From positions 96,330 through 160,329 of the forward strand of contig MEFD01000017.1 of the NCBI GenBank assembly GCA_001724995.1: a stretch of DNA of 64,000 nucleotides. Direction: 5' to 3'. The position numbers were made by a program, and so were the translations under genes. Of the stretch, positions 10,813 to 20,839 are shown in pieces (the stretch's first letter is position 1; the number at the start of each line of letters is the position of its first letter). The stretch is from Rubrivivax sp. SCN 71-131 (lineage in GTDB: Bacteria; Pseudomonadota; Gammaproteobacteria; Burkholderiales; Burkholderiaceae_C). The notes beneath the pieces are model-generated. The model did not search any database and was not told where the DNA came from. It saw only the letters and a list, made by a program, of their open reading frames with translations.

Positions 10813-12873
10813 CTACTTGGACAAGACCTTGTGCACGGTGTCGGCCACGTTCTTCGCCGTGAAGCCGAAATGCTCGAACAGCGCGGGCGCGGGGGCGCTC
10901 TCGCCGTAGCGGTCGATGCCGACCACCGCGGCGCAGCCGTACTTCCACCAGAAATCGGTGACGCCGGCCTCCACCGCCACGCGCGGCAGCCCGGGCGGCA
11001 GCACCGCCTTCTTGTACTTGACATCCTGGCGGTCGAAGACGGTGGTGCTGGGCATGCTCACGACGCGCACCGCGATGCCGCGGCGCGCGAGCTCGGCCTG
11101 CGCGTGCAGCGCAAGCGCCACCTCGGAGCCGGTGGCGATGATCACCGCCTGCGCCTTCTTTCCCAGGCCGACCTCGCCGGGCTCGGAAAGCACGTAGGCT
11201 CCCTTGGCGATCTCGTCCAGGCCCGCCTTGGGCGCGTAGGGCAGGTTCTGGCGCGACAGCAGCAGCGCGCTGGGCCGGTGCGTGTTGCCCAGCGCAATCG
11301 CCCAGGCGATCGCCGTCTCGGCGCTGTCGGCCGGGCGCCAGACGTCCAGGCCCGGGATCATGCGCAGCGAGGCCGCGTGCTCCACGCTCTGGTGCGTGGG
11401 CCCGTCCTCGCCCAGGCCGATCGAGTCGTGGGTGAAGACGTGGACGATGCGCCGCTTCATCAGCGCGGCCATGCGGATGGCGTTGCGGGCGTAGTCGCTG
11501 AAGGTCAGGAAGGTGCCGCCGTAGGGGATGTAGCCGCCGTGCAGCGCCAGGCCGATCATGATCGCCGCCATGCCGAACTCGCGCACGCCGTAGTTGATGT
11601 GGCGGCCGCCGTTGGGCCGGCCCTCGGCATCGAAACGCAGGGCCGGGGTGGCGCTGGTGTTCGTCAGGTTGGAGCCGGTCAGGTCGGCGGAGCCGCCGAG
11701 CAGCTCGGGCATGGCCTTCGTGAAGACCTCGAGCGCGACCTGGCTGGCCTTGCGCGTGGCCAGCGTCTCGGCCTTGGCATGCGCGGCGACGACGGCGTCG
11801 ACCGCGGTCTGCGCGAAGCCCGCGGGCAGTTCGCCCTTCATGCGGCGCTGCAGCTCGGCGGCAAGCTCGGGGTGCGCGCCCGCGTAGGCGCATAGGCGCG
11901 CGCTCCATTCGCCGCGGCGCGCGGCGCCCTGCGCCCGCGCGTCCCAGGCGGCGCGGATGGCCTCGGGGATCACGAAGGGCGGCTCGCTCCAGCCGAGGGC
12001 CTCGCGCGTGAGGCGGATCTCCTCGGCGCCCAGCGGCTCGCCGTGCGCCTTGGCGGTGCCGGCGCGGTGCGGCGAGCCCTTGCCGATGGTCGTGCGACAG
12101 CGGATCAGCGTGGGCTTCATCGCCGAGGTGCGTGCCCGCGCGATCGCGGCATCGAGCGCGTCGACATCGTGGCCGTCGACCGCGCCGATGACCTCCCAGC
12201 CGTAGGCCTCGAAGCGCTTGCCGACGTCGTCGACGTACCAGGGCGAGACCTCGCCGTCGATGCTGATGCCGTTGTCGTCGTAGAGCGCGACCAGCTTGTT
12301 CAGCTTCCACGCGCCGGCCAGCGCGCAGGCCTCGTGGCTCACGCCCTCCATCAGGCAGCCGTCGCCGAGGAAGACGTAGGTGTGGTGGTCGACGATGGCG
12401 TGGCCGGGCCGGTTGAACTCGTGCGCGAGCAGCTTCTCGGCCAGCGCCATGCCGACCGCGTTGGCCAGTCCCTGCCCGAGCGGGCCGGTGGTCGTCTCCA
12501 CGCCCGGCGCGATGTCCACCTCCGGGTGGCCCGGCGTCTTGCTGTGCAGCTGGCGGAAGGCGCGCAGCTCCTGCATCGGCAGCTCGTAGCCCGTCAGGTG
12601 CAGCAGCGCGTAGATGAGCATCGACGCGTGGCCGTTGCTGAGCACGAAGCGGTCGCGGTCGGCCCAGTGCGGGTCGGCCGGGTCGTGGCGCAGGTGGCGG
12701 CTCCACAGCGCCACCGCCATCTCGGCCATGCCCATCGGCGCGCCCGGGTGGCCGGAGTTCGCCTGCTGGACCGCGTCCATCGCCAGCGCGCGGATCGCGT
12801 TGGCCATCCCGGCCGGGGTGGCGGACGCCGCGGTCGCGGGCAGCGCAGGGTCGTCGGACAAGATGGAGGACAT
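10813..12873 (-). CDS. tkt: Transketolase
   Basis: 686 residues, the usual length. Thiamine-diphosphate enzyme of the pentose phosphate and Calvin cycles. Visible motifs: [14 protein letters not shown] near residue 40, [14 protein letters not shown], the ThDP-binding [18 protein letters not shown] stretch, and the [14 protein letters not shown] region of the pyrimidine domain. First gene of a tkt-gapA-purC operon. It is divergent from speD; the 101 bases between hold both promoters. In related Burkholderiales tkt-gapA-pgk is common, so purC in place of pgk is a local rearrangement worth noting. Confidence 0.95.
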
Positions 12874-12974: not shown

Positions 12975-13361
12975 ATGCAGGGCTTGCACCTGACGGCCGA
13001 CCTTCACGACTGCGCGCCCGAAGCCGCGCGCGCGGCGCCGCTCTTCCTCGATCCGGCCGCGCTGCGCACGCACTGCCTGCAGGCGGTGCGGGCCGCCGGT
13101 CTCGAGGCGGTGGGCGAATGCTTCCACCGCTTCGAGGGCGGCGGTGGCGTCACCGGCGTCGTGCTGCTGGCCGAATCGCACCTGGCGGTGCACACCTGGC
13201 CCGAGCTGCGCGCGGTGACGCTGGACGTCTACGTCTGCAACTTCGGCGCCGACAACAGCGCGCGCGCCGAGGCGCTGCTGGCGCAACTGGAGGCGGCCTT
13301 TGCGCCGGCTCGCGCCCTGCGCCACCGCCTGCAGCGCGGGTCCTCGTCGCGCCTGGGCTGA
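12975..13361 (+). CDS. speD: SpeD-like pyruvoyl decarboxylase proenzyme
   Basis: 128 residues, a small class 1B S-adenosylmethionine decarboxylase type. The self-cleavage site ESH is at residues 67-69, so Ser68 becomes the pyruvoyl group; His73 (in HTWPE) and Cys88 keep the spacing seen in Thermotoga SpeD (63/68/83). Family function: decarboxylation of AdoMet to give the aminopropyl donor for SpeE. Some SpeD homologues are known to have switched to arginine or ornithine decarboxylation, so the substrate is not certain. It sits 2.7 kb from a SpeE-like gene on the opposite strand and within the polyamine-associated cluster. The ATG 12975 is chosen over 12906 because homologues start at GLHL. 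Confidence 0.85.
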
Positions 13362-13416
13362 GCGCGAGCGCGAGGCAGCGAGCGCCTGTGCGTCGCCGCG
13401 CCTGCGCGCCGTGCCG

Positions 13417-14397
13417 TCAGCCCGCGAGCGGCTTCGTCGGCGCGTCGATGCGCGCCAGCACCTCGGGCGTGAGCCGCTCCAGCACGGCCAGGGCGCCCAG
13501 GTTCTGCTGCAGCTGCTCGCTGCGGGAGGCGCCGGTGATGACGGTGCTGACGTTCGGGTTCTTCGCCGCCCAGGCGATCGCCAGCTGCGCCAGCGTGCAC
13601 CCCAGCTCCGCGGCGATGGGCGCCAGCGAGGCGACGGCGGCGTTCTTCGCCGGATCGACGAGCTCGTCGCGCAGCGAGGCGTAGCTGGCGACCGTGCCGC
13701 GGCTGCCCGCGGGCACGCCATCCTTGTACTTGCCGCTGAGCAGGCCGCCGGCCAGCGGGCTCCAGGTCGTCAGGCCCAGGCCGATGTCTTCGTACAGGCG
13801 CGCGTACTCCTGCTCGACGCGGCGGCGGTGCAGCAGGTGGTACTGCGGCTGCTCCATCACCGGCTTGTGCAGGTGGTGGCGCTCGGCGATCTCCCAGGCG
13901 GCGCGGATGTCGGCCGCCGCCCATTCGCTCGTGCCCCAGTAGAGCGCCTTGCCCTGGGTGATCATGTCGCTCATGGCGCGCACCGTCTCCTCGATCGGCG
14001 TCTGCGGGTCCGGTCGGTGGCAGTAGACGAGGTCGATGTGCTCGAGGCCGAAGCGGCGCAGGCTGCCGTCGATGGCCTGCATCAGGTACTTGCGGTTGAG
14101 CGTGTTGCGGCGGTTCACGCCATGGCCCTCGCGATCCAGGCCCCAGAAGAACTTGGTCGAGACGAGGTAGTTCAGCCGCGGCCAGCCGAGCTGCTTCAGC
14201 GCCCGGCCCATGATCAGCTCGCTCTGCCCGAGCGCGTAGGCCTCGGCGTTGTCGAAGAAGTTGATGCCGGCGTCATACGCCGCGGCCAGCATCTCCGCGG
14301 CGGCCTTGCCGTCGATCTGGTTGGCGTAGGTGACCCACGAGCCCAGGGACAGCGCGCTGACGCGCACGCCGGCACGGCCAAGGCGACGGTATTGCAT
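13417..14397 (-). CDS. Aldo/keto reductase, Kv-beta/YghZ type
   Basis: 326 residues, an (alpha/beta)8 NADPH-dependent oxidoreductase. The catalytic tetrad is complete: Asp49 and Tyr54 in DNAEAY, Lys82 in STKFFWG, His127 in YCHRPDP. The sequence has the features of the AKR6/14 group (potassium-channel beta-subunit-like; [15 protein letters not shown] loop), which reduce aldehydes and ketones including methylglyoxal. The ORF extends 26 residues further upstream, but [10 protein letters not shown] is the expected start. It lies between speD and the FAD oxidoreductase, 77 bases downstream of the latter and in the same direction, so it could act on aldehydes from amine oxidation; that link is inference. 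Confidence 0.9.
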
Positions 14398-14474
14398 GGG
14401 AAGGACTCTCTCCACGAGGACGGGGACGCCCGCAAGCGTAGCGGCTTCGCAGCGGCTGCGGGCGCGATCGGCCA

Positions 14475-16097
14475 TCAGGCGCAGCGGCAGGGTGCGGCGG
14501 CGGCCTCGCAGCCGGCGATGAAGGCTTCCTCGAAGATCGAGTAGCCGGCCAGATCCGAATGCGCGAAGCGCACGCGGCCGCTGCCGCCGCGCAGTGCGGC
14601 GCGCGCGGCAGCGCTTGCCTGGCGCCCGGGCCGCGGGATCGCCATCGCATGACCCCAGCGCTGCAGGTCGATGCGCTGCATGCGCTGGCGCAGGTCGGGG
14701 TGCAGCGGCGCGAGCTCGGACAGCACGCGCTCGGCCCAGGGCGCCCAGGCCGGCGCCAGCAGCTCCGGCCGCGCGCGCGCCGGCAGCGCGGCATAGGCGG
14801 TGAGCACCGTGGCGCCGGTCACCGGGCGCAGGCTCTGGTGCATGGCGTCGACGTAGCCGAGCATGGCGCCGCCGTAGCGCACGTTGTCCCAGGCCGGCGG
14901 CACCCCCGGGCGTGCGCGCAGCGGCCCCTCGAGCTGCAGGTTGGCGACCAGCCAGGGCGCATAGGCGGTGGCGGCCGCGGCCTGCAGCAGCGCCTGCGGC
15001 GGCGCGTCGAGCACGCGCGCGGCGACGAAAAGCGGCAGCGCGATGACCACGGTGCCGGCGCTCCAGGTTTCCAGCGTCCGGCCGTGGCGTGCGAGCACCT
15101 GCACGCCGTGGCGCTGCTCCCGCACGCGCAGCACGACGCGGCCGCCGTGCACGCGCCCCGACAGCGGCTGCGCCAGCCGGCGCACCAGCCAGGCATTGCC
15201 CTCGGGCCAGGTGAAGACGGGCTGCGGCGGGTCCTGCGCGTCACCGGGCGCGTGAAAGCCGTGGCGGCTGCCGAAGTAGTGCAGCCCGGCCCAGGCCGAG
15301 ACCTCGTCGGGGCCGGCGCCGTAGTCGTCGCGGCAGGCGTAGTCGAGGGCCCAGCGCAGACGCGCGTCGGACAGGCCCTGGCCGTCGAGCCAGGCGGCAA
15401 AGCTCTGACGGTCGAGCGCGTCGTGGGCGGCGCTCCAGGGCACGCGGTGGCTGGGGATGGCAAAGTGCGGGGCGGCGGCCACGGCGCGCGCGAAGCGACG
15501 GTACTGCGCCATCGTCGCCGAGCCCGGATCGGCCGGCGGCAGCAGGCCCTCGTGCCAGGCGCCCTCGAACCACAGCCGCTCCTGCGGCGCGTGGCAGAGG
15601 TGGCGTTCATCGGCCACGGTGCCGCGGGCGTCGTGGCGCAGCAGGCCGATCTCGTGCAGCCACTCGACGACCTCGTGCGCGGGCGCCTGCGGCTGCGGCA
15701 GGTAGTGCGCCCCGCGCGGGCAGGCCATGCCGGCCATGGCGTGGCCGCGGCTGTTGCCGCCGGGATCGTCCTCGAGCTCGAGCAGGTGCACGTCGTCGAC
15801 TCCGGCGCGCGCGAAGCCGCGCGCCGCGGCCAGGCCGGCGATGCCGCCGCCCAGCACCAGCACGCTCGCGCGCCGCGGCGTGGCCTGCGCGGCCTGGCCT
15901 GCCTGGTCTTCCTCGGGCGGGCGCGACTGGCGCAAGGCGTGTCCGCGCTCGTGCGCGGCGCCGATCCAGCCGCCCTGCGGCAGCGGCGCAGGCGCCGGCG
16001 CGCACGCTGCCAGCGGCCACGCCGCGGCCGCCTGCACGAGCCGGCGCCGGTGCAGGCCGCGGCGCGCCGCCGGCGCTACGGATGCACCTTGCCCCAT
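14475..16097 (-). CDS. Tat-exported lipoprotein FAD oxidoreductase (amine-oxidase-like)
   Basis: 540 residues. N-terminus: a twin-arginine-like HRRRLVQ (16-22), a short hydrophobic stretch, and lipobox LAAC with Cys32, predicting a folded, Tat-exported lipoprotein. Then a Rossmann FAD signature [13 protein letters not shown] at about 80-92 with an acidic ELEDDPGG strand end, and an amine-oxidase-like C-terminal half. The ATG at 16097 lies 22 bases inside the end of the speE-like gene, with GAAGAGGA directly in front. The coupling to a membrane SpeE suggests it oxidises a polyamine or related amine at the periplasmic face; this is inference. The substrate is unknown and no covalent FAD site is evident. 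Confidence 0.8.
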
Positions 16098-17638
16098 TCC
16101 TCTTCGAAGGTGTACACGAGCGACTGCTCCGACAGCCGGTTGGGCGGCATCGCCACGCGCGCCATGTCCGGCGGGAACTGCAGCAGCGCCGGCAACCCCT
16201 CGACGGTGAGAAAGCGCAGGCCCGGCGGCAAGGCCTGCGGCAGGCGGTAGGGGCGATGGCCGGCGATGACGAAGCCCCACTCGCCAAAGCTCGGCACGTG
16301 CGCGTGGTAGGGCGCGGTGTCCAGCCCGACTGCCTCGAGCGTGGCCACGACGCTCCAGAAGCTGCGCCGCGCCAGCAGCGGCGAGGTGGTCTGCACGGCG
16401 ATGAAGCCGCCGGCCGCGAGGTGGCGGTCGACGAGCGCGTAGAAGCTCGTCGTGTAGAGCTTGCCGAGCGCGAAGTTGCTGGGGTCGGGGAAGTCGATGA
16501 TGACGAGGTCGAAGAACGCGTCGCTGCGCTCCAGCCAGCCGAAGGCGTCGTCGTTGACGATGCGCAGCCTGGGGCTGGCAAGCGCCCCGGCGTTGAGCGC
16601 CGTCAGCATGGGTTCGGTCGCGAACAGGCGCGTCATGCGCGGATCCAGCTCGACCAGCGTCACCTGTTCCACGCCGGGATGACGCAGGACCTCGCGCACC
16701 GCCATGCCGTCGCCGCCACCCAGCACGAGCACGCGCCGCGGCGCACCGTGCGCGGCCAGCGCCGGGTGCACCAGCGCCTCGTGGTAGCGGTACTCGTCGC
16801 GCGAGTCGAACTGCAGGTTGCCGTTGAGGTACAGACGCAAGCCGCCGTGGCCGCGGGTGACGACGATGCGCTGGTAGTCGCTGCTCTGGCGCAGCACGAT
16901 GGGCTCGCCGTAGAAGCGGTCCTCGGCCCAGGTGGTGAGCCGCGCGCCACCGGCCATGGCGGCGCCCAGCACGGCCACCACCGTCGCGCAGGCCAGCGCG
17001 TGCAGCCGCCAGTGGCGCAGCTCGCCGCGAAAGAGGAACAGCGCCCAGACGGCGACCGCGGCGTTGAGCAGCCCGAAGAAGACGCCGGTACGCACGAGAC
17101 CCAGGTGCGGCACGAACAGCAGCGGAAAGGCCACGGCCACGACGAGGGCGCCCAGGTAGTCGAAGGTCAGCACTTGCGACACCAGGTCTTTGAGCGCGTA
17201 GCGCTCGGCGAAGCGGCGCTTGAGGATGCGCATCACCAGCGGGATCTCGAGGCCGACGAGCGCGCCGACGACGAGCACCAGTGCGTACAGCAGCACGCGA
17301 AACGACGCCACCGCGCCCGCGGGCAGCAGGTTGTGGGCGACGAAGAGCAGCGCCGGCAACAGCCCGCCGATGAGGCCCACGAGCAGCTCGACGACGAGGA
17401 ACTGCGCGACCAGCTGGCGCACGACGAAGCGGCTGAGGTAGGAGCCCAGGCCCAGCGCGAACATGTAGCAGCCGATGACGGTGCTGAACTGCAGCACCGA
17501 GTCGCCGAGCAGGTAGCTCGCCAGCGCGCCCGCGGCGAGCTCATAGACGAGGCCGCAGGCGGCGATGACGAAGACCGACGCCAGCAGCGCCAGCTCCGCC
17601 GGGGCGACCGGCGACTCGCGGCGGCCCGGCGCCCTCAT
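16076..17638 (-). CDS. speE: Membrane-anchored spermidine-synthase-like protein
   Basis: 520 residues. The N-terminal half has about seven transmembrane helices (roughly residues 15-240). The C-terminal half is a spermidine-synthase Rossmann domain with the decarboxy-AdoMet loop LVLGGGDGMAVREVL (about 300), VELDPRM, and DLVIIDFPDPSNFALGKLYT in the position of the catalytic Asp motif. Known polyamine aminopropyltransferases are soluble and about 280 residues; membrane fusions of this size are a separate group with no defined product. Next to DUF350 and DUF4178 genes on one side and overlapping the FAD lipoprotein on the other. Likely aminopropylates an amine at the inner membrane; partner SpeD at 12975. 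Confidence 0.85.
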   Translation of the reverse strand: MRAPGRRESPVAPAELALLASVFVIAACGLVYELAAGALASYLLGDSVLQFSTVIGCYMFALGLGSYLSRFVVRQLVAQFLVVELLVGLIGGLLPALLFVAHNLLPAGAVASFRVLLYALVLVVGALVGLEIPLVMRILKRRFAERYALKDLVSQVLTFDYLGALVVAVAFPLLFVPHLGLVRTGVFFGLLNAAVAVWALFLFRGELRHWRLHALACATVVAVLGAAMAGGARLTTWAEDRFYGEPIVLRQSSDYQRIVVTRGHGGLRLYLNGNLQFDSRDEYRYHEALVHPALAAHGAPRRVLVLGGGDGMAVREVLRHPGVEQVTLVELDPRMTRLFATEPMLTALNAGALASPRLRIVNDDAFGWLERSDAFFDLVIIDFPDPSNFALGKLYTTSFYALVDRHLAAGGFIAVQTTSPLLARRSFWSVVATLEAVGLDTAPYHAHVPSFGEWGFVIAGHRPYRLPQALPPGLRFLTVEGLPALLQFPPDMARVAMPPNRLSEQSLVYTFEEEWGKVHP

Positions 17639-17651
17639 GCCACGACCGCCT

Positions 17652-17876
17652 TCAGCCCTGCACCGCGGCCGAGATGATGAGGCCGATGGCGATGCACATC
17701 GCGCCCACGACGATGGCCAGCGCCACGTTCTTGTGCTCGACGATCTCGCCCCACAGGTCGTAGGGCGTCAGCTTGTCGATGATGACGAAGCACAGCCAGA
17801 AGACGCCCACGCCGATCAGCGCGTAGATCATGGAGCCGAAGAACGCCCCCGGCCTGAGCCATTCGATTCCCATCAT
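17652..17876 (-). CDS. DUF350 small membrane protein
   Basis: 74 residues with two transmembrane helices (about 12-35 and 48-70) joined by a loop DKLTPYDLWGEIVEHKN that is typical of DUF350 (YjfL-like), where two such hairpins or one occur. Function is unknown in the family. It starts with two adjacent Met codons; AGGAGGT is five bases upstream of the first. Only 13 bases separate it from speE and 22 from the DUF4178 gene, so all three are one transcript. DUF350, DUF4178 and SpeE/SpeD neighbourhoods recur in many bacteria, which supports a joint function. Confidence 0.85.
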   Translation of the reverse strand: MMGIEWLRPGAFFGSMIYALIGVGVFWLCFVIIDKLTPYDLWGEIVEHKNVALAIVVGAMCIAIGLIISAAVQG

Positions 17877-17898
17877 GCAGGACCTCCTGTCGTGAACG

Positions 17899-19449
17899 CT
17901 ACTTGTGTCCGCCGCCGCCGCTGGAGAAGCCGCCGAAGGAGCCTCCGCCGCTGCGCGAGCCGCTGCCGGAATCATCGTCGCTGCAGGTCTCCAGCGCGAG
18001 CAGCAGGACGACGATGAGGACGAAGAAGAGGGTCTGGCGCCAGCCGCCCGAGGGCGTGGCGCTCAGCGGCTTCACGTCGCGGCGCAGCGCGGCGGCGTCG
18101 GTGATGCCGAAGGCCTTGGCGACGACGTCCGAGGCGATCGTGCGCCCGGCCGACCAGACCAGCTCGCCGGCGCTCTGCTCGCAGGACAGGCGACCGACCG
18201 AACCCTTGCCGCTGCCGACGTAGTCGAGCACCCGCGCCTCCTCGCCGCGGCGCACGCGCCAGTAGAACTCGCCCAGCACCCAGCTCACCTTGGCGCGGTA
18301 GCTCGCGCGCAGTTCGTAGCCGATGCCGCGCCAGCTCACGCGCTTGCCGCGTCCGGTGGGCGTGCCGGTGATCGGGCGCACCCAGCTCCAGCCGTCCTCC
18401 TCGGAGTCGACGAGGAAGGCGAAGCCGAGCTCGCGGTGGTAGAGCAGGTACTCGCGCCAGAAGACCTGCTCCTCGTCGTCGTCCGGGTCGGGCAGGTCGC
18501 AGCGCTCCAGGTAGCCCACCACCTGCCAGGGTTCGGCCTCTTCGGTGCCCAGCGCCAGCGTCCCGCTGCGTCCCAGCGGGATCAAGGGCATCAGCCCGCC
18601 CTCGCCGGCGTTGTTCTGTGCGTAGTGCTCGAGCTCGCCGCCCACGCCCTGGGAGACGTCGGTCACCGTATGGCACTGCGGGCAGGCGATGGCCTGCGTC
18701 GTCGAGAGCCGGATCGGCAGCGCGGCGCCGCAGCCCGGGCACTCGAGGCTGCGGCCGGCGAGCGTCTTCTCGCTCGTGGCCTGCGCCATCCCGCTCATCC
18801 TCAGCTCGGCCAGTCGCACCGGGCGGCCGATCGACCAGGCCGGATGCGCGGCGTCGCTGTAATCCAGCGAGCCGACCTCGTCCTGCACGTTGCGCAACTC
18901 GGCGACGACGAACTCGCCCTGCAGCCGCGGCGCCGCGGGCAGCTCGCCCTGGGCGGCGATCAGATGGGCGCGCACGACCGAGGCAAGCGTCCACGCGCGG
19001 CCGTCGACGACGAGCGGCTGGCCCACGGGCAGGCGCAGCGCCGCCGCGGCATCGGCCGGGGCATCGCCGGGCGAGGCGGCCTCGAAGGCGAGGACGTAGG
19101 CGCCGTTGTCCTCGCTCAGCCAGCCCGAGCGCTGCCCGCCAGGAGCGCCATCGAAGAGCGCGTGCCATTCGTTCCACGTGCCTGCGGCATAGCTGTACTG
19201 GAGCCTGCCGACGAGCGTGAACGCCACGCCCTGGTAAGTCCCCGAGGCGCCCAGCTGCAGCGGGCTGTGGTCGTCGAAGAGCTCGGCGCTGACGCCGATG
19301 CGCCGCAGCGCCTCGCCCTCGCGCACCAGGGTGCTGCGGCAGTAGCCACAGACGGCACTGGCCGAGGCGGCGGAAGCGAACTCGACCGGCGCGCCGCAGT
19401 TGGGGCACGCGGCGCGGTAGGCGCGATGGGCGCTCGGGGGCGAGCTCAC
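17899..19449 (-). CDS. DUF4178 zinc-ribbon membrane-tethered protein
   Basis: 516 residues. Zinc ribbon 1: Cys15, Cys18, Cys34, Cys37. First DUF4178-like beta domain about 55-200. Zinc ribbon 2 at about 240-265 (CPGCG, CPQC). Second DUF4178 domain about 270-450. A single transmembrane helix (LFFVLIVVLLLALE, about 473-488) is followed by an acidic-Ser stretch and a Gly/Ser tail ending GGFSSGGGGHK. The low-complexity tail resembles those of TPM-domain and LemA-associated proteins. No catalytic motif. Function unknown; the context (SPFH upstream, DUF350 and SpeE downstream) suggests a cytoplasmic scaffold or sensor at the inner membrane. Confidence 0.82.
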   Translation of the reverse strand: MSSPPSAHRAYRAACPNCGAPVEFASAASASAVCGYCRSTLVREGEALRRIGVSAELFDDHSPLQLGASGTYQGVAFTLVGRLQYSYAAGTWNEWHALFDGAPGGQRSGWLSEDNGAYVLAFEAASPGDAPADAAAALRLPVGQPLVVDGRAWTLASVVRAHLIAAQGELPAAPRLQGEFVVAELRNVQDEVGSLDYSDAAHPAWSIGRPVRLAELRMSGMAQATSEKTLAGRSLECPGCGAALPIRLSTTQAIACPQCHTVTDVSQGVGGELEHYAQNNAGEGGLMPLIPLGRSGTLALGTEEAEPWQVVGYLERCDLPDPDDDEEQVFWREYLLYHRELGFAFLVDSEEDGWSWVRPITGTPTGRGKRVSWRGIGYELRASYRAKVSWVLGEFYWRVRRGEEARVLDYVGSGKGSVGRLSCEQSAGELVWSAGRTIASDVVAKAFGITDAAALRRDVKPLSATPSGGWRQTLFFVLIVVLLLALETCSDDDSGSGSRSGGGSFGGFSSGGGGHK

Positions 19450-19465
19450 CTCGGGCCGGGGGCGG

Positions 19466-20509
19466 CTAGACGAGCTTCTTCAGCAGTTCGGCCTTCTTGG
19501 CCGCGAACTCGTCCTCGGTCAGGATGCCCTTGGCCTTGAGTTCACCGAGCTTCTCGAGCGTGGCCATGATCTCGTCGGGCTGGATGCCCGCCGCCGCCGC
19601 CGCGCCCGGGGCCGCGGCAGGGTTGGCCGCGGCCAGCCCGCCCTGCAGCTGCTGCGCCATCACCTGGCCCAGGGCGACGCCCGCGCCCAGGCCCATCGCA
19701 TCACCGACCACACCGCCGCCGCCACCGGCCGCGGCTTCGGCAAATTTCGGGATCGCCTGCGCCGTCTGGTACTGCATGAACTTGCCCATGTCGCCGCCGA
19801 CCATGCCCATGCCGATCTTCTGGTCGAGCACCTTCTGCAGTTCCTCGGGCAGGCTCAGGTTCTGCACCGTCACCGATTCGAGTACGAGGCCGAGCTTGGC
19901 GAACTCGGGCGCGGTGACCTCCTTCAACTGCGTCGCGAACTCGACCTGGTTGGCCGCGAGGTCGAGGAAGGGCACGCCGCTGGCGGCCACCGCGTCGCTG
20001 ATGTGCTGCAGCATGAGCGCGCGCAACTGGCCGTCGATGTCGTCGACCGTGTAGCGCTCGCGCGTGCCCGAGACGCTGGTGTGAAAGAGCTTGGGCTCGC
20101 CGATGCGCCAGGCGTAGTTGCCGAAGGCGCGCAGGCGCACGGCGCCGAAGTCCTTGTCGCGGATCGTCACCGGCTGGCTCGTGCCCCACTTGCGGTCGAG
20201 CTGCTGGCGCGTGCTGAAGAAGTAGACGTCGCTCTTGAACGGGCTCTGGAACAGCTTGTCCCAGTTCTTCAGGTAGGTGAGGACGGGCAGCGTCTGCGTC
20301 GTCAGCTTGTACATGCCCGGGCCGAAGACGTCGGCCACCTGGCCCTCGTTGACGAAGACGGCCACCTGGCTCTCGCGCACGGTGAGCGAGGCGCCGTACT
20401 GGATCTCATTGCCCGCCATCGGGTAGCGCCAGCCGAGCATGCCGTCGCCGCTCTCGGTCCACTCGAGGATGTCGATGAACTGCTTCTTGATGAAATCCAT
20501 CAGCGCCAT
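19466..20509 (-). CDS. SPFH/Band-7 domain protein with SHOCT tail
   Basis: 347 residues. SPFH domain about 35-240 (ESQVAVFVNEGQVADVFGPG, then a virion-core-like half). A Gly-rich linker (GGGGGVVGDAMGLGAG) and an Ala/Pro stretch precede a C-terminal SHOCT helix pair (about 312-347, EKLGELKAKGILTEDEFAAKK). No transmembrane segment: this is the cytosolic YdjI-type branch of SPFH proteins, which oligomerise and are often found with DUF4178 and zinc-ribbon proteins. First gene of the leftward cluster; 16 bases separate it from the DUF4178 gene. It probably scaffolds the membrane complex. Confidence 0.85.
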   Translation of the reverse strand: MALMDFIKKQFIDILEWTESGDGMLGWRYPMAGNEIQYGASLTVRESQVAVFVNEGQVADVFGPGMYKLTTQTLPVLTYLKNWDKLFQSPFKSDVYFFSTRQQLDRKWGTSQPVTIRDKDFGAVRLRAFGNYAWRIGEPKLFHTSVSGTRERYTVDDIDGQLRALMLQHISDAVAASGVPFLDLAANQVEFATQLKEVTAPEFAKLGLVLESVTVQNLSLPEELQKVLDQKIGMGMVGGDMGKFMQYQTAQAIPKFAEAAAGGGGGVVGDAMGLGAGVALGQVMAQQLQGGLAAANPAAAPGAAAAAGIQPDEIMATLEKLGELKAKGILTEDEFAAKKAELLKKLV

Positions 20510-20617: not shown

Positions 20618-20664
20618 GGCCGCCGCCGCGCCGACCGCTCTCCAGGGCTGCCGACGCGGTCATC

Positions 20665-20755
20665 CGCTGGGGGTGTTGGCGCGGCCGCAGGGCCGGTGCC
20701 GACTGAGAGAGTCCCTTCGAACCTGATTGAGGTAATCCTCGCGCAGGGAAGCACG
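20665..20755 (+). promoter_or_regulatory. TPP riboswitch (THI element)
   Basis: The region carries the conserved TPP aptamer blocks in order: GGGGGTGTT near 20669, CTGAGAGAGTCCC at 20703-20715, then TTCGAACCTGATTGAGGTAATCC (20716-20738) and CGCGCAGGGAAGCA to about 20752. The CUGAGA and ACCUGAU...GUAAU...GCAGGGAA elements are diagnostic of thiamine-diphosphate binding. The boundaries are approximate. The controlled gene starts 85 bases further on and encodes a thiamine-binding protein homologue, which agrees with the call. Repression when TPP is plentiful, by masking the ribosome-binding site or by termination, is expected from the class; I could not assign the switching helix. Confidence 0.88.
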
Positions 20756-20839
20756 TTCGGTGGCTCGACGGCATTCTCTTTCTCGTGCCGGCAAAGCAGC
20801 CCCTGACGCTCGCCGACCTGCCATCTGCAAGAGTTGCAC

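What the first reader, a model, noticed from the sequence alone, without database searches (positions are those of the whole stretch)
12975..20509. Envelope polyamine module: SPFH-SHOCT, DUF4178 zinc ribbon, DUF350, membrane SpeE, Tat-lipoprotein FAD oxidase, SpeD
Five leftward genes with tiny gaps or overlaps (SPFH 16 bases to DUF4178, 22 to DUF350, 13 to SpeE, 22-base overlap to FAD gene) face a small SpeD. The products would place a spermidine-synthase domain on the inner membrane and an FAD amine-oxidase-like enzyme on the outside, next to three families of unknown function. SpeD keeps its ESH cleavage site, His73 and Cys88. Association of DUF350/DUF4178 with SpeD/SpeE is known to recur, but the product and purpose are not described; a local polyamine or amine made and modified at the membrane is my inference.
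Basis: partly seen in the sequence, partly recalled or inferred. Interest (0 to 1): 0.82.

Follow-up and report, generated by a model that had tools for sequence, protein, structure and literature searches.

The report
Periplasm-facing aminopropyl transfer gene module
A conserved bacterial gene cluster encodes an enzyme that likely makes the aminopropyl donor used for polyamines, a membrane enzyme whose catalytic half is predicted to face outside the inner membrane, and a flavin enzyme predicted to be exported, so the cluster would modify some still unknown molecule of the cell envelope.

Summary
The gene cluster is real, with the gaps and overlap as described. The order SPFH-DUF4178-DUF350-SpeE-FAD recurs in 56 of 66 testable public loci. 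In 200 genomes of the order, SpeD is present in 31 of 32 module genomes and 38 of 168 others. The kind is known: related operons are in PMC11237479, and Li 2019 (recalled) argued that this SpeE does not use putrescine.

What I add is sidedness. AlphaFold gives seven long helices before an intact spermidine-synthase fold. Positive loops lie on the side opposite that fold in 97 of 97 relatives; the fold lacks cysteine in 84 of 97, against 1 of 20 soluble SpeE of the order. Of 35 further membrane SpeE, 33 agree on charge and 30 lack cysteine. The FAD protein has Tat-type RR plus lipobox in 93 of 100 relatives. So aminopropyl transfer and flavin oxidation are predicted outside the inner membrane, and decarboxylated AdoMet would have to cross it. 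Acceptor and product are unknown; nothing was tested at the bench.

The parts
19466..20509 (-). SPFH (Band_7_1) protein with C-terminal SHOCT, 347 aa, no clear TM helix; predicted cytoplasmic scaffold at the membrane
   Evidence: Pfam Band_7_1 260.9 bits, SHOCT 36.9 bits; best 19-residue hydropathy 1.39, and 1.10-1.61 in 22 relatives
17899..19449 (-). Protein with two DUF4178 stretches and Cys pairs like zinc ribbons, one predicted C-terminal TM helix (469-488), Gly-rich tail, 516 aa
   Evidence: DUF4178 115.3 bits, two stretches; C15 C18 C34 C37 C237 C240 C256 C259 invariant in 30 sequences; model pLDDT 78
17652..17876 (-). DUF350 protein, 74 aa, two predicted TM helices (half the size of the form in part of the order)
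   Evidence: PF03994 52.2 bits; sizes 70-75 aa versus 128-162 aa frames in relatives
16076..17638 (-). Membrane SpeE, 520 aa: seven predicted TM helices then a spermidine-synthase domain
16946..17638 (-). SpeE membrane region (aa 1-231) with E33, E84, E131, R137, D160, N192 near-invariant
   Evidence: 97-sequence alignment; 35 further loci
16079..16921 (-). SpeE spermidine-synthase domain (aa 240-520), no cysteine, predicted on the periplasmic side
14475..16097 (-). FAD-dependent amine-oxidase-family protein, 540 aa
   Evidence: Amino_oxidase PF01593 80.5 bits; alignment A3
16002..16097 (-). Predicted Tat lipoprotein signal of the FAD protein (RR at 17-18, lipobox LAAC with Cys32)
   Evidence: Sequence; R17, R18 and C32 nearly invariant in A3; 93 of 100 relatives by pattern
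12975..13361 (+). SpeD, class 1b AdoMet decarboxylase, 128 aa; Ser68, His73, Cys88
   Evidence: TIGR03330 82.9 bits, cut-off 75.65

Best explanation
This conserved six-gene module (SPFH-SHOCT, DUF4178, DUF350, membrane SpeE, FAD lipoprotein, SpeD) likely adds aminopropyl groups to an unknown molecule of the cell envelope: SpeD is predicted to make decarboxylated AdoMet in the cytoplasm, the catalytic domain of SpeE is predicted to sit on the periplasmic side and would transfer the aminopropyl group there, and the predicted Tat-exported FAD lipoprotein would oxidise the product. Decarboxylated AdoMet would have to cross the inner membrane. The best candidate path is the membrane part of SpeE itself, which holds conserved acidic residues (E33, E84, E131, D160) that could pass a doubly positive substrate; DUF350 is the alternative. 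SPFH-SHOCT and DUF4178 would form the cytoplasmic platform. Shown directly: gene set and order, linkage to SpeD, intact catalytic residues, charge and cysteine patterns, export-signal motifs. Predicted: the seven-helix model. Inferred: sidedness, donor export, acceptor, and the oxidation step.
For: Linkage: 56 of 66 loci hold the ordered five genes. SpeD in 31 of 32 module genomes versus 38 of 168 without the module, Fisher p 4e-16; 36 of those 38 have a strong soluble SpeE. The own genome has one SpeD and one PF01564 protein, both here. Catalysis: GGGDG and the Asp at 332, 364, 382 and 385 are kept in 97 of 97 (one has A at 311), and the Asp at 310, 332, 364, 382, 385 in 35 of 35 further loci (A at 308 in four). 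Sidedness: seven long helices before the domain; K+R 10.5 versus 2.4 on the two sides, 97 of 97 in the same sense, and 33 of 35 further loci agree; cysteine-free domain in 84 of 97 although the membrane part keeps 2.7 Cys, versus 1 of 20 soluble SpeE of the order and 0 of 120 others. Export of FAD: RR + lipobox in 93 of 100. In 14 of 32 order loci SpeE is divergent from SPFH-DUF4178, with the FAD gene beside SpeE in 12: a split that matches the predicted compartments.
Against: No experiment. TM2 is weakly hydrophobic (mean 1.39), although sidedness depends mainly on TM7, which reaches 1.6 in 84 of 97. In the 35 further loci a simple peak count finds seven helices in 24, six in nine and eight in two, and two (L178, L203) have the opposite charge sense. 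Among the 120 best protein hits most have one Cys in the domain (95 of 120). No known domain was recognised in the membrane part (Pfam); its fold alone was not searched. Releasing MTA outside would waste adenine and methionine. SpeD is near in only 19 of 32 order loci. SPFH is within about 8 kb in only 23 of 32, and FAD is beside SpeE in 28 of 32, so neither is strictly required. The FAD family has no invariant Lys in 19 sequences, so classical amine-oxidase chemistry is doubtful. Many of the 97 sequences are close kin.
Confidence: 0.55

Rival explanations
1. Cytoplasmic aminopropylation: the SpeE domain faces the cytoplasm, uses decarboxylated AdoMet there on a membrane-bound acceptor, and the product is flipped outward by the membrane part or DUF350 before the FAD lipoprotein acts on it.
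For: No donor export is needed; no export motif was seen in SpeD by me; soluble SpeE enzymes are cytoplasmic. Fits the printed wording of a 7TM transporter-like domain fused to SpeE (PMC11237479).
Against: Needs TM7 not to cross, or the K/R-rich loops to be outside in 97 of 97 relatives; does not explain cysteine loss in the SpeE domain but not in the membrane part.
Confidence: 0.27
2. Ordinary spermidine synthesis: SpeD plus SpeE simply make spermidine, as the only such pair in the genome, and the FAD enzyme degrades excess.
For: Single SpeD and single SpeE in the genome; catalytic residues intact; one OKR_DC_1-type decarboxylase could supply putrescine or a similar amine.
Against: Five module genomes also carry a strong soluble SpeE; the family differs from 20 soluble SpeE of the order at several fixed positions that I take, from recall of SpeE structures, to lie near the acceptor (272 D to N, 276 M to Q, 451 Y to F, 266 F/L/Y to D); Li 2019 (recalled abstract, not held) reports no spermidine and no complementation for this kind.
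Confidence: 0.13
3. SpeD is an arginine or ornithine decarboxylase, so the module handles agmatine or putrescine rather than decarboxylated AdoMet.
For: Such neofunctionalised SpeD are widespread (PMC10407285, passages read).
Against: Over the TIGR03330 cut-off; the F, S, H, W, E and C of the T. maritima enzyme are kept in 20 of 20 SpeD of the fetched loci; SpeD co-occurs with the module in 31 of 32. The paper's genomes with anomalous SpeD lack canonical ADC or ODC; this genome has one OKR_DC_1 protein, whose substrate I did not test.
Confidence: 0.04

Closest known systems
Polyamine-linked PspA/band-7 operons of the PSP survey (PMC11237479, passages of sections 19 and 20 read)
   Same: 7TM-SpeE fusion, DUF350, DUF4178; [quoted passage not shown]
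   Different: That band-7 protein is described with 2 TM helices, here none is clear; DUF350 there is 8TM or 4TM, here 2TM; I did not look for a PspA gene. The passages read say nothing about which side of the membrane the SpeE domain faces
MFS-SpdSyn fusion plus SpeD plus DUF350 (Li et al. 2019, Biochem J 476:2579, not held; title seen in reference lists, content recalled)
   Same: Functional SpeD paired with a membrane SpeE and DUF350; acceptor thought not to be putrescine
   Different: As recalled, no sidedness claim and no FAD Tat lipoprotein in the model
SpeE2 of the Pseudomonas ISS locus (PMC7298707, passages read)
   Same: Spermidine-synthase domain behind N-terminal TM helices, function unknown
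   Different: 847 aa, and the catalytic Asp residues are replaced (E624, T556, P627); here they are intact
Soluble spermidine synthase SpeE (PDB 1uir, 1jq3 and others)
   Same: Complete fold and catalytic Asp
   Different: Membrane-anchored, Cys-poor, several fixed positions differ from soluble SpeE of the order

Membership tests
Membrane polyamine aminopropyltransferase (NCBIfam PRK03612, NF002956) | Score over curated cut-off | tested here: met
   674.6 bits versus 472
Spermidine synthase fold (PF01564) | Complete two-part fold | tested here: met
Spermidine synthase fold (PF01564) | Catalytic Asp residues (T. maritima D101, D173, D176; numbers from PMC7298707, mapping by motif) | tested here: met
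   D310, D382, D385 in 97 of 97 and 35 of 35
Spermidine synthase fold (PF01564) | Putrescine as acceptor | not testable with these tools
   Several fixed positions differ from soluble SpeE; no assay
AdoMet decarboxylase class 1b (TIGR03330) | Score over cut-off | tested here: met
   82.9 versus 75.65
AdoMet decarboxylase class 1b (TIGR03330) | Pyruvoyl Ser, His, Cys (S63, H68, C83 per PMC10407285) | tested here: met
   S68, H73, C88, in 20 of 20 SpeD of the fetched loci
SpeD neofunctionalised to ODC (SpeDC) | Four diagnostic residues Gln, Thr, Phe, Tyr | tested here: inconclusive
   Positions are shown only in a figure that is not held
Flavin amine oxidase (PF01593) | Family score and FAD motif | tested here: met
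   80.5 bits versus 19.8; GxGxxG in A3
Flavin amine oxidase (PF01593) | Conserved Lys near FAD N5 of polyamine and monoamine oxidases (recalled) | tested here: inconclusive
   No invariant Lys in 19 sequences; position not checked on a structure
PSP-survey band-7/SHOCT polyamine operon (PMC11237479) | Band-7 fused to C-terminal 2TM and SHOCT | tested here: not met
   Band-7 and SHOCT present, but no clear TM helix: best 19-residue hydropathy 1.39, 22 relatives 1.10-1.61. Hence 'variant', not member
PSP-survey band-7/SHOCT polyamine operon (PMC11237479) | AdoMet decarboxylase and polyamine oxidase genes in the operon | tested here: met
   Both genes in the cluster by family; SpeD is on the other strand here, and near in 19 of 32 order loci
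Tat lipoprotein | Twin Arg, hydrophobic stretch, lipobox Cys | tested here: met
   [16 protein letters not shown] here; 93 of 100 relatives by pattern; export not shown
SpeE2 of ISS loci (PMC7298707) | Catalytic Asp replaced by E, T, P | tested here: not met
   Asp kept at 310, 382, 385

The most novel reading that the evidence does not exclude
Bacteria export decarboxylated AdoMet through the membrane half of SpeE and carry out aminopropyl transfer in the periplasm, on lipid, LPS or envelope protein. This would be an extracytoplasmic alkylation chemistry with a nucleoside-sulfonium donor, finished by an exported flavin enzyme. The same sidedness would hold for the whole membrane-SpeE family across Pseudomonadota, including operons with DUF350 and PspA.
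Probability: 0.35. Interest if true: 0.88.

Novelty: new variant of a known kind. Interest (0 to 1): 0.62.

Why it matters
Membrane SpeE is common (44 of 398 genomes drawn from the phylum at E <= 1e-40), and what it aminopropylates is open. A predicted outside location of the catalytic domain tells the field where to look (outer leaflet, periplasm, LPS) and gives a simple test (PhoA/GFP fusions). If right, an AdoMet-derived donor crosses the inner membrane, something I know of in no textbook pathway (recall, not a search).

Tried and rejected

Rows dropped: A1 used 27 of 28 full-length SpeE (near-identical L048 left out); A2 used 30 of 32 DUF4178 proteins (L043 cut by the contig end, L048 left out); A3 used 19 of the 26 FAD frames (left out: L038, L044, L045, L047, L048, L058, L060, uncertain starts or near-copies). 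The 97 SpeE are 28 from the order sample and 69 of the 72 public loci with SpeE (filter: at least 480 aa, E < 1e-50). Of 44 genomes hit, 34 were fetched (35 loci); seven were already in the order sample, and G335, G512, G542 were left out. Four of the 35 (L192, L193, L208, L209) are from the window's own family, so they are not distant. The soluble control used 20 of 41 genomes with a strong soluble SpeE; 'strong' was my reading (about 130 bits and up, soluble length), so a 100-bit, 361-aa second SpeE frame in G158 and many hits of about 45-67 bits were not counted. In one search, 100 of 105 FAD loci were scored; of the 7 pattern failures, 3 pass by eye (L118, L119, L129), L104 is cut by the contig end, and L058-L060 have RR but no lipobox match. 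The pattern control looked at the first 130 residues of stop-to-stop frames, not at a stretch before a motif. The p values ignore kinship among genomes.

Full report
WHAT IS THERE. A transketolase lies beyond SpeD (10813-12873), and a TPP riboswitch lies at 20659-20766 on the plus strand.

CONSERVATION. In 200 genomes of the window's order, 32 have DUF4178. Within about 8 kb of it (some contigs end sooner), by single-sequence search, SpeE is present in 29 of 32, FAD in 26 (28 after a wider fetch; G032, G077 and G111 show none and the G159 contig is cut), SPFH in 23 and SpeD in 19, the window included. Two layouts occur: the window's, and one in which SpeE runs opposite to SPFH-DUF4178 (14 of 32 loci; FAD beside SpeE in 12; a DUF350 of 4-TM size was found in seven of these 14). 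Of the 66 with enough upstream DNA, 56 hold the five genes in order; of 67 with enough downstream DNA, SpeD starts beyond the FAD end in 28.

SPED BELONGS TO IT. Of the 32 module genomes 31 have SpeD, against 38 of 168 others; 36 of these 38 carry a strong soluble SpeE. Of the module genomes 27 have no strong soluble SpeE; five do (G093, G105, G133, G152, G159). The one module genome without SpeD, G159, is in about 680 contigs. The own genome has one SpeD and one PF01564 protein, both in this cluster. SpeD keeps the processing Ser, His and Cys, and the F, W and E positions that I recall as AdoMet-binding, in 20 of 20 SpeD of the fetched loci (one of the 20, L066, stands apart from its cluster).

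WHICH SIDE. AlphaFold2 gives seven long helices before the domain, which I assign as TM (mean pLDDT 90.5). With boundaries from that model and hydropathy, K+R on the N-terminal, 2-3, 4-5 and 6-7 loops averages 10.5, against 2.4 on the others, in the same sense in 97 of 97. By the positive-inside rule the domain behind TM7 is outside. The call hangs on TM7 (hydropathy at least 1.6 in 84 of 97), not on the weak TM2. Independently, the domain has no cysteine in 84 of 97 and one in 13, while the membrane part of the same proteins has 2.7 on average; soluble SpeE have 2.70 (20 of the order; one has none) and 2.95 (120 others; none without). The result spreads: of 35 further membrane SpeE loci from 398 genomes of the phylum (44 genomes hit; four of the 35 from the window's own family), 33 have the same charge sense (L178 and L203 do not), and 30 have no Cys, four have one, one has two. 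Against: a simple hydropathy count gives seven helices in only 24 of the 35, six in nine, eight in two; and among the 120 best protein hits 95 have one Cys, 24 none, one two.

FAD PROTEIN. In 100 scored relatives, 93 match twin Arg plus lipobox by pattern. The same pattern hits 14 of 100 SpeE, 1 of 94 DUF4178, 0 of 83 SPFH, 2 of 59 SpeD, 1 of 11 AKR and 0 of 24 TKT frames. Kinship is to amine oxidases in general; no invariant Lys was seen in 19 sequences, so 'oxidase' is a family word, not a shown activity.

MECHANISM. SpeD makes decarboxylated AdoMet inside (likely). The donor crosses the membrane (inferred), perhaps through the SpeE membrane part, where E131, D160, Y161 and N192 are fixed in 35 of 35 further loci and E33 (33), E84 (30) and R137 (34) nearly so. 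The domain outside transfers aminopropyl to an envelope acceptor (inferred). The FAD lipoprotein acts on the product (inferred). DUF4178, SPFH-SHOCT and DUF350 are assigned platform or channel roles by association only.

WHAT IS KNOWN. PMC11237479 (passages, mainly of sections 19 and 20, read) describes operons with a 7TM-SpeE fusion, DUF350 and DUF4178, and a variant with band-7/SHOCT, AdoMet decarboxylase and polyamine oxidase; it proposes a link between envelope stress and polyamine or aminopropylated substrates. In the passages read it does not say which side the SpeE domain is on, and no word beginning with 'periplasm' occurs in its main text. Li 2019 (recalled; not held) proposed a non-polyamine substrate. 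So the kind is known; the two-TM DUF350, the SPFH-SHOCT without a clear TM and the Tat FAD lipoprotein make this a variant, and the sidedness is my inference. PMC10407285 was read in passages; PMC11107197, PMC7857480 and PMC8503589 were searched for passages, which gave nothing on membrane SpeE beyond the citation of Li 2019.

LIMITS. Frames come from simple stop-to-stop or first-start rules; E-values and p values ignore kinship; the membrane fold was not searched alone; no expression data.

Noticed in passing
window 20659-20766 (+): TPP riboswitch (RF00059), 54.7 bits, just over the gathering score of 54.3, upstream of plus-strand frames and divergent from the SPFH gene
   Followed up: no
window 13417-14397 (-): Kv_beta-like aldo/keto reductase behind the FAD gene (325.6 bits, cut-off 365.4); present in 10 of 80 related loci
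   Followed up: partly
own genome, L034: Exosortase-A-linked PLP decarboxylase (TIGR03099, 620 bits), which hints at a PEP-CTERM/exosortase system in this genome
   Followed up: no
G015, G050, G102 and others: In genomes of the order without the module, SpeD matches lie in long open frames (for example 410, 422, 652 aa) of the same length as the frame of a neighbouring soluble SpeE match, which suggests SpeD-SpeE fusions
   Followed up: no
L066 (G061): A second, shorter DUF4178 frame (235 aa) stands next to a lone SpeD, away from the main cluster
   Followed up: no
L195-L207: A second membrane-SpeE group (563-607 aa, 13 loci); 9 of the 13 have a DUF350 of about 300 aa beside SpeE, 2 have SpeD, and none showed FAD, SPFH or DUF4178 hits in the fetched stretch
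   Followed up: partly
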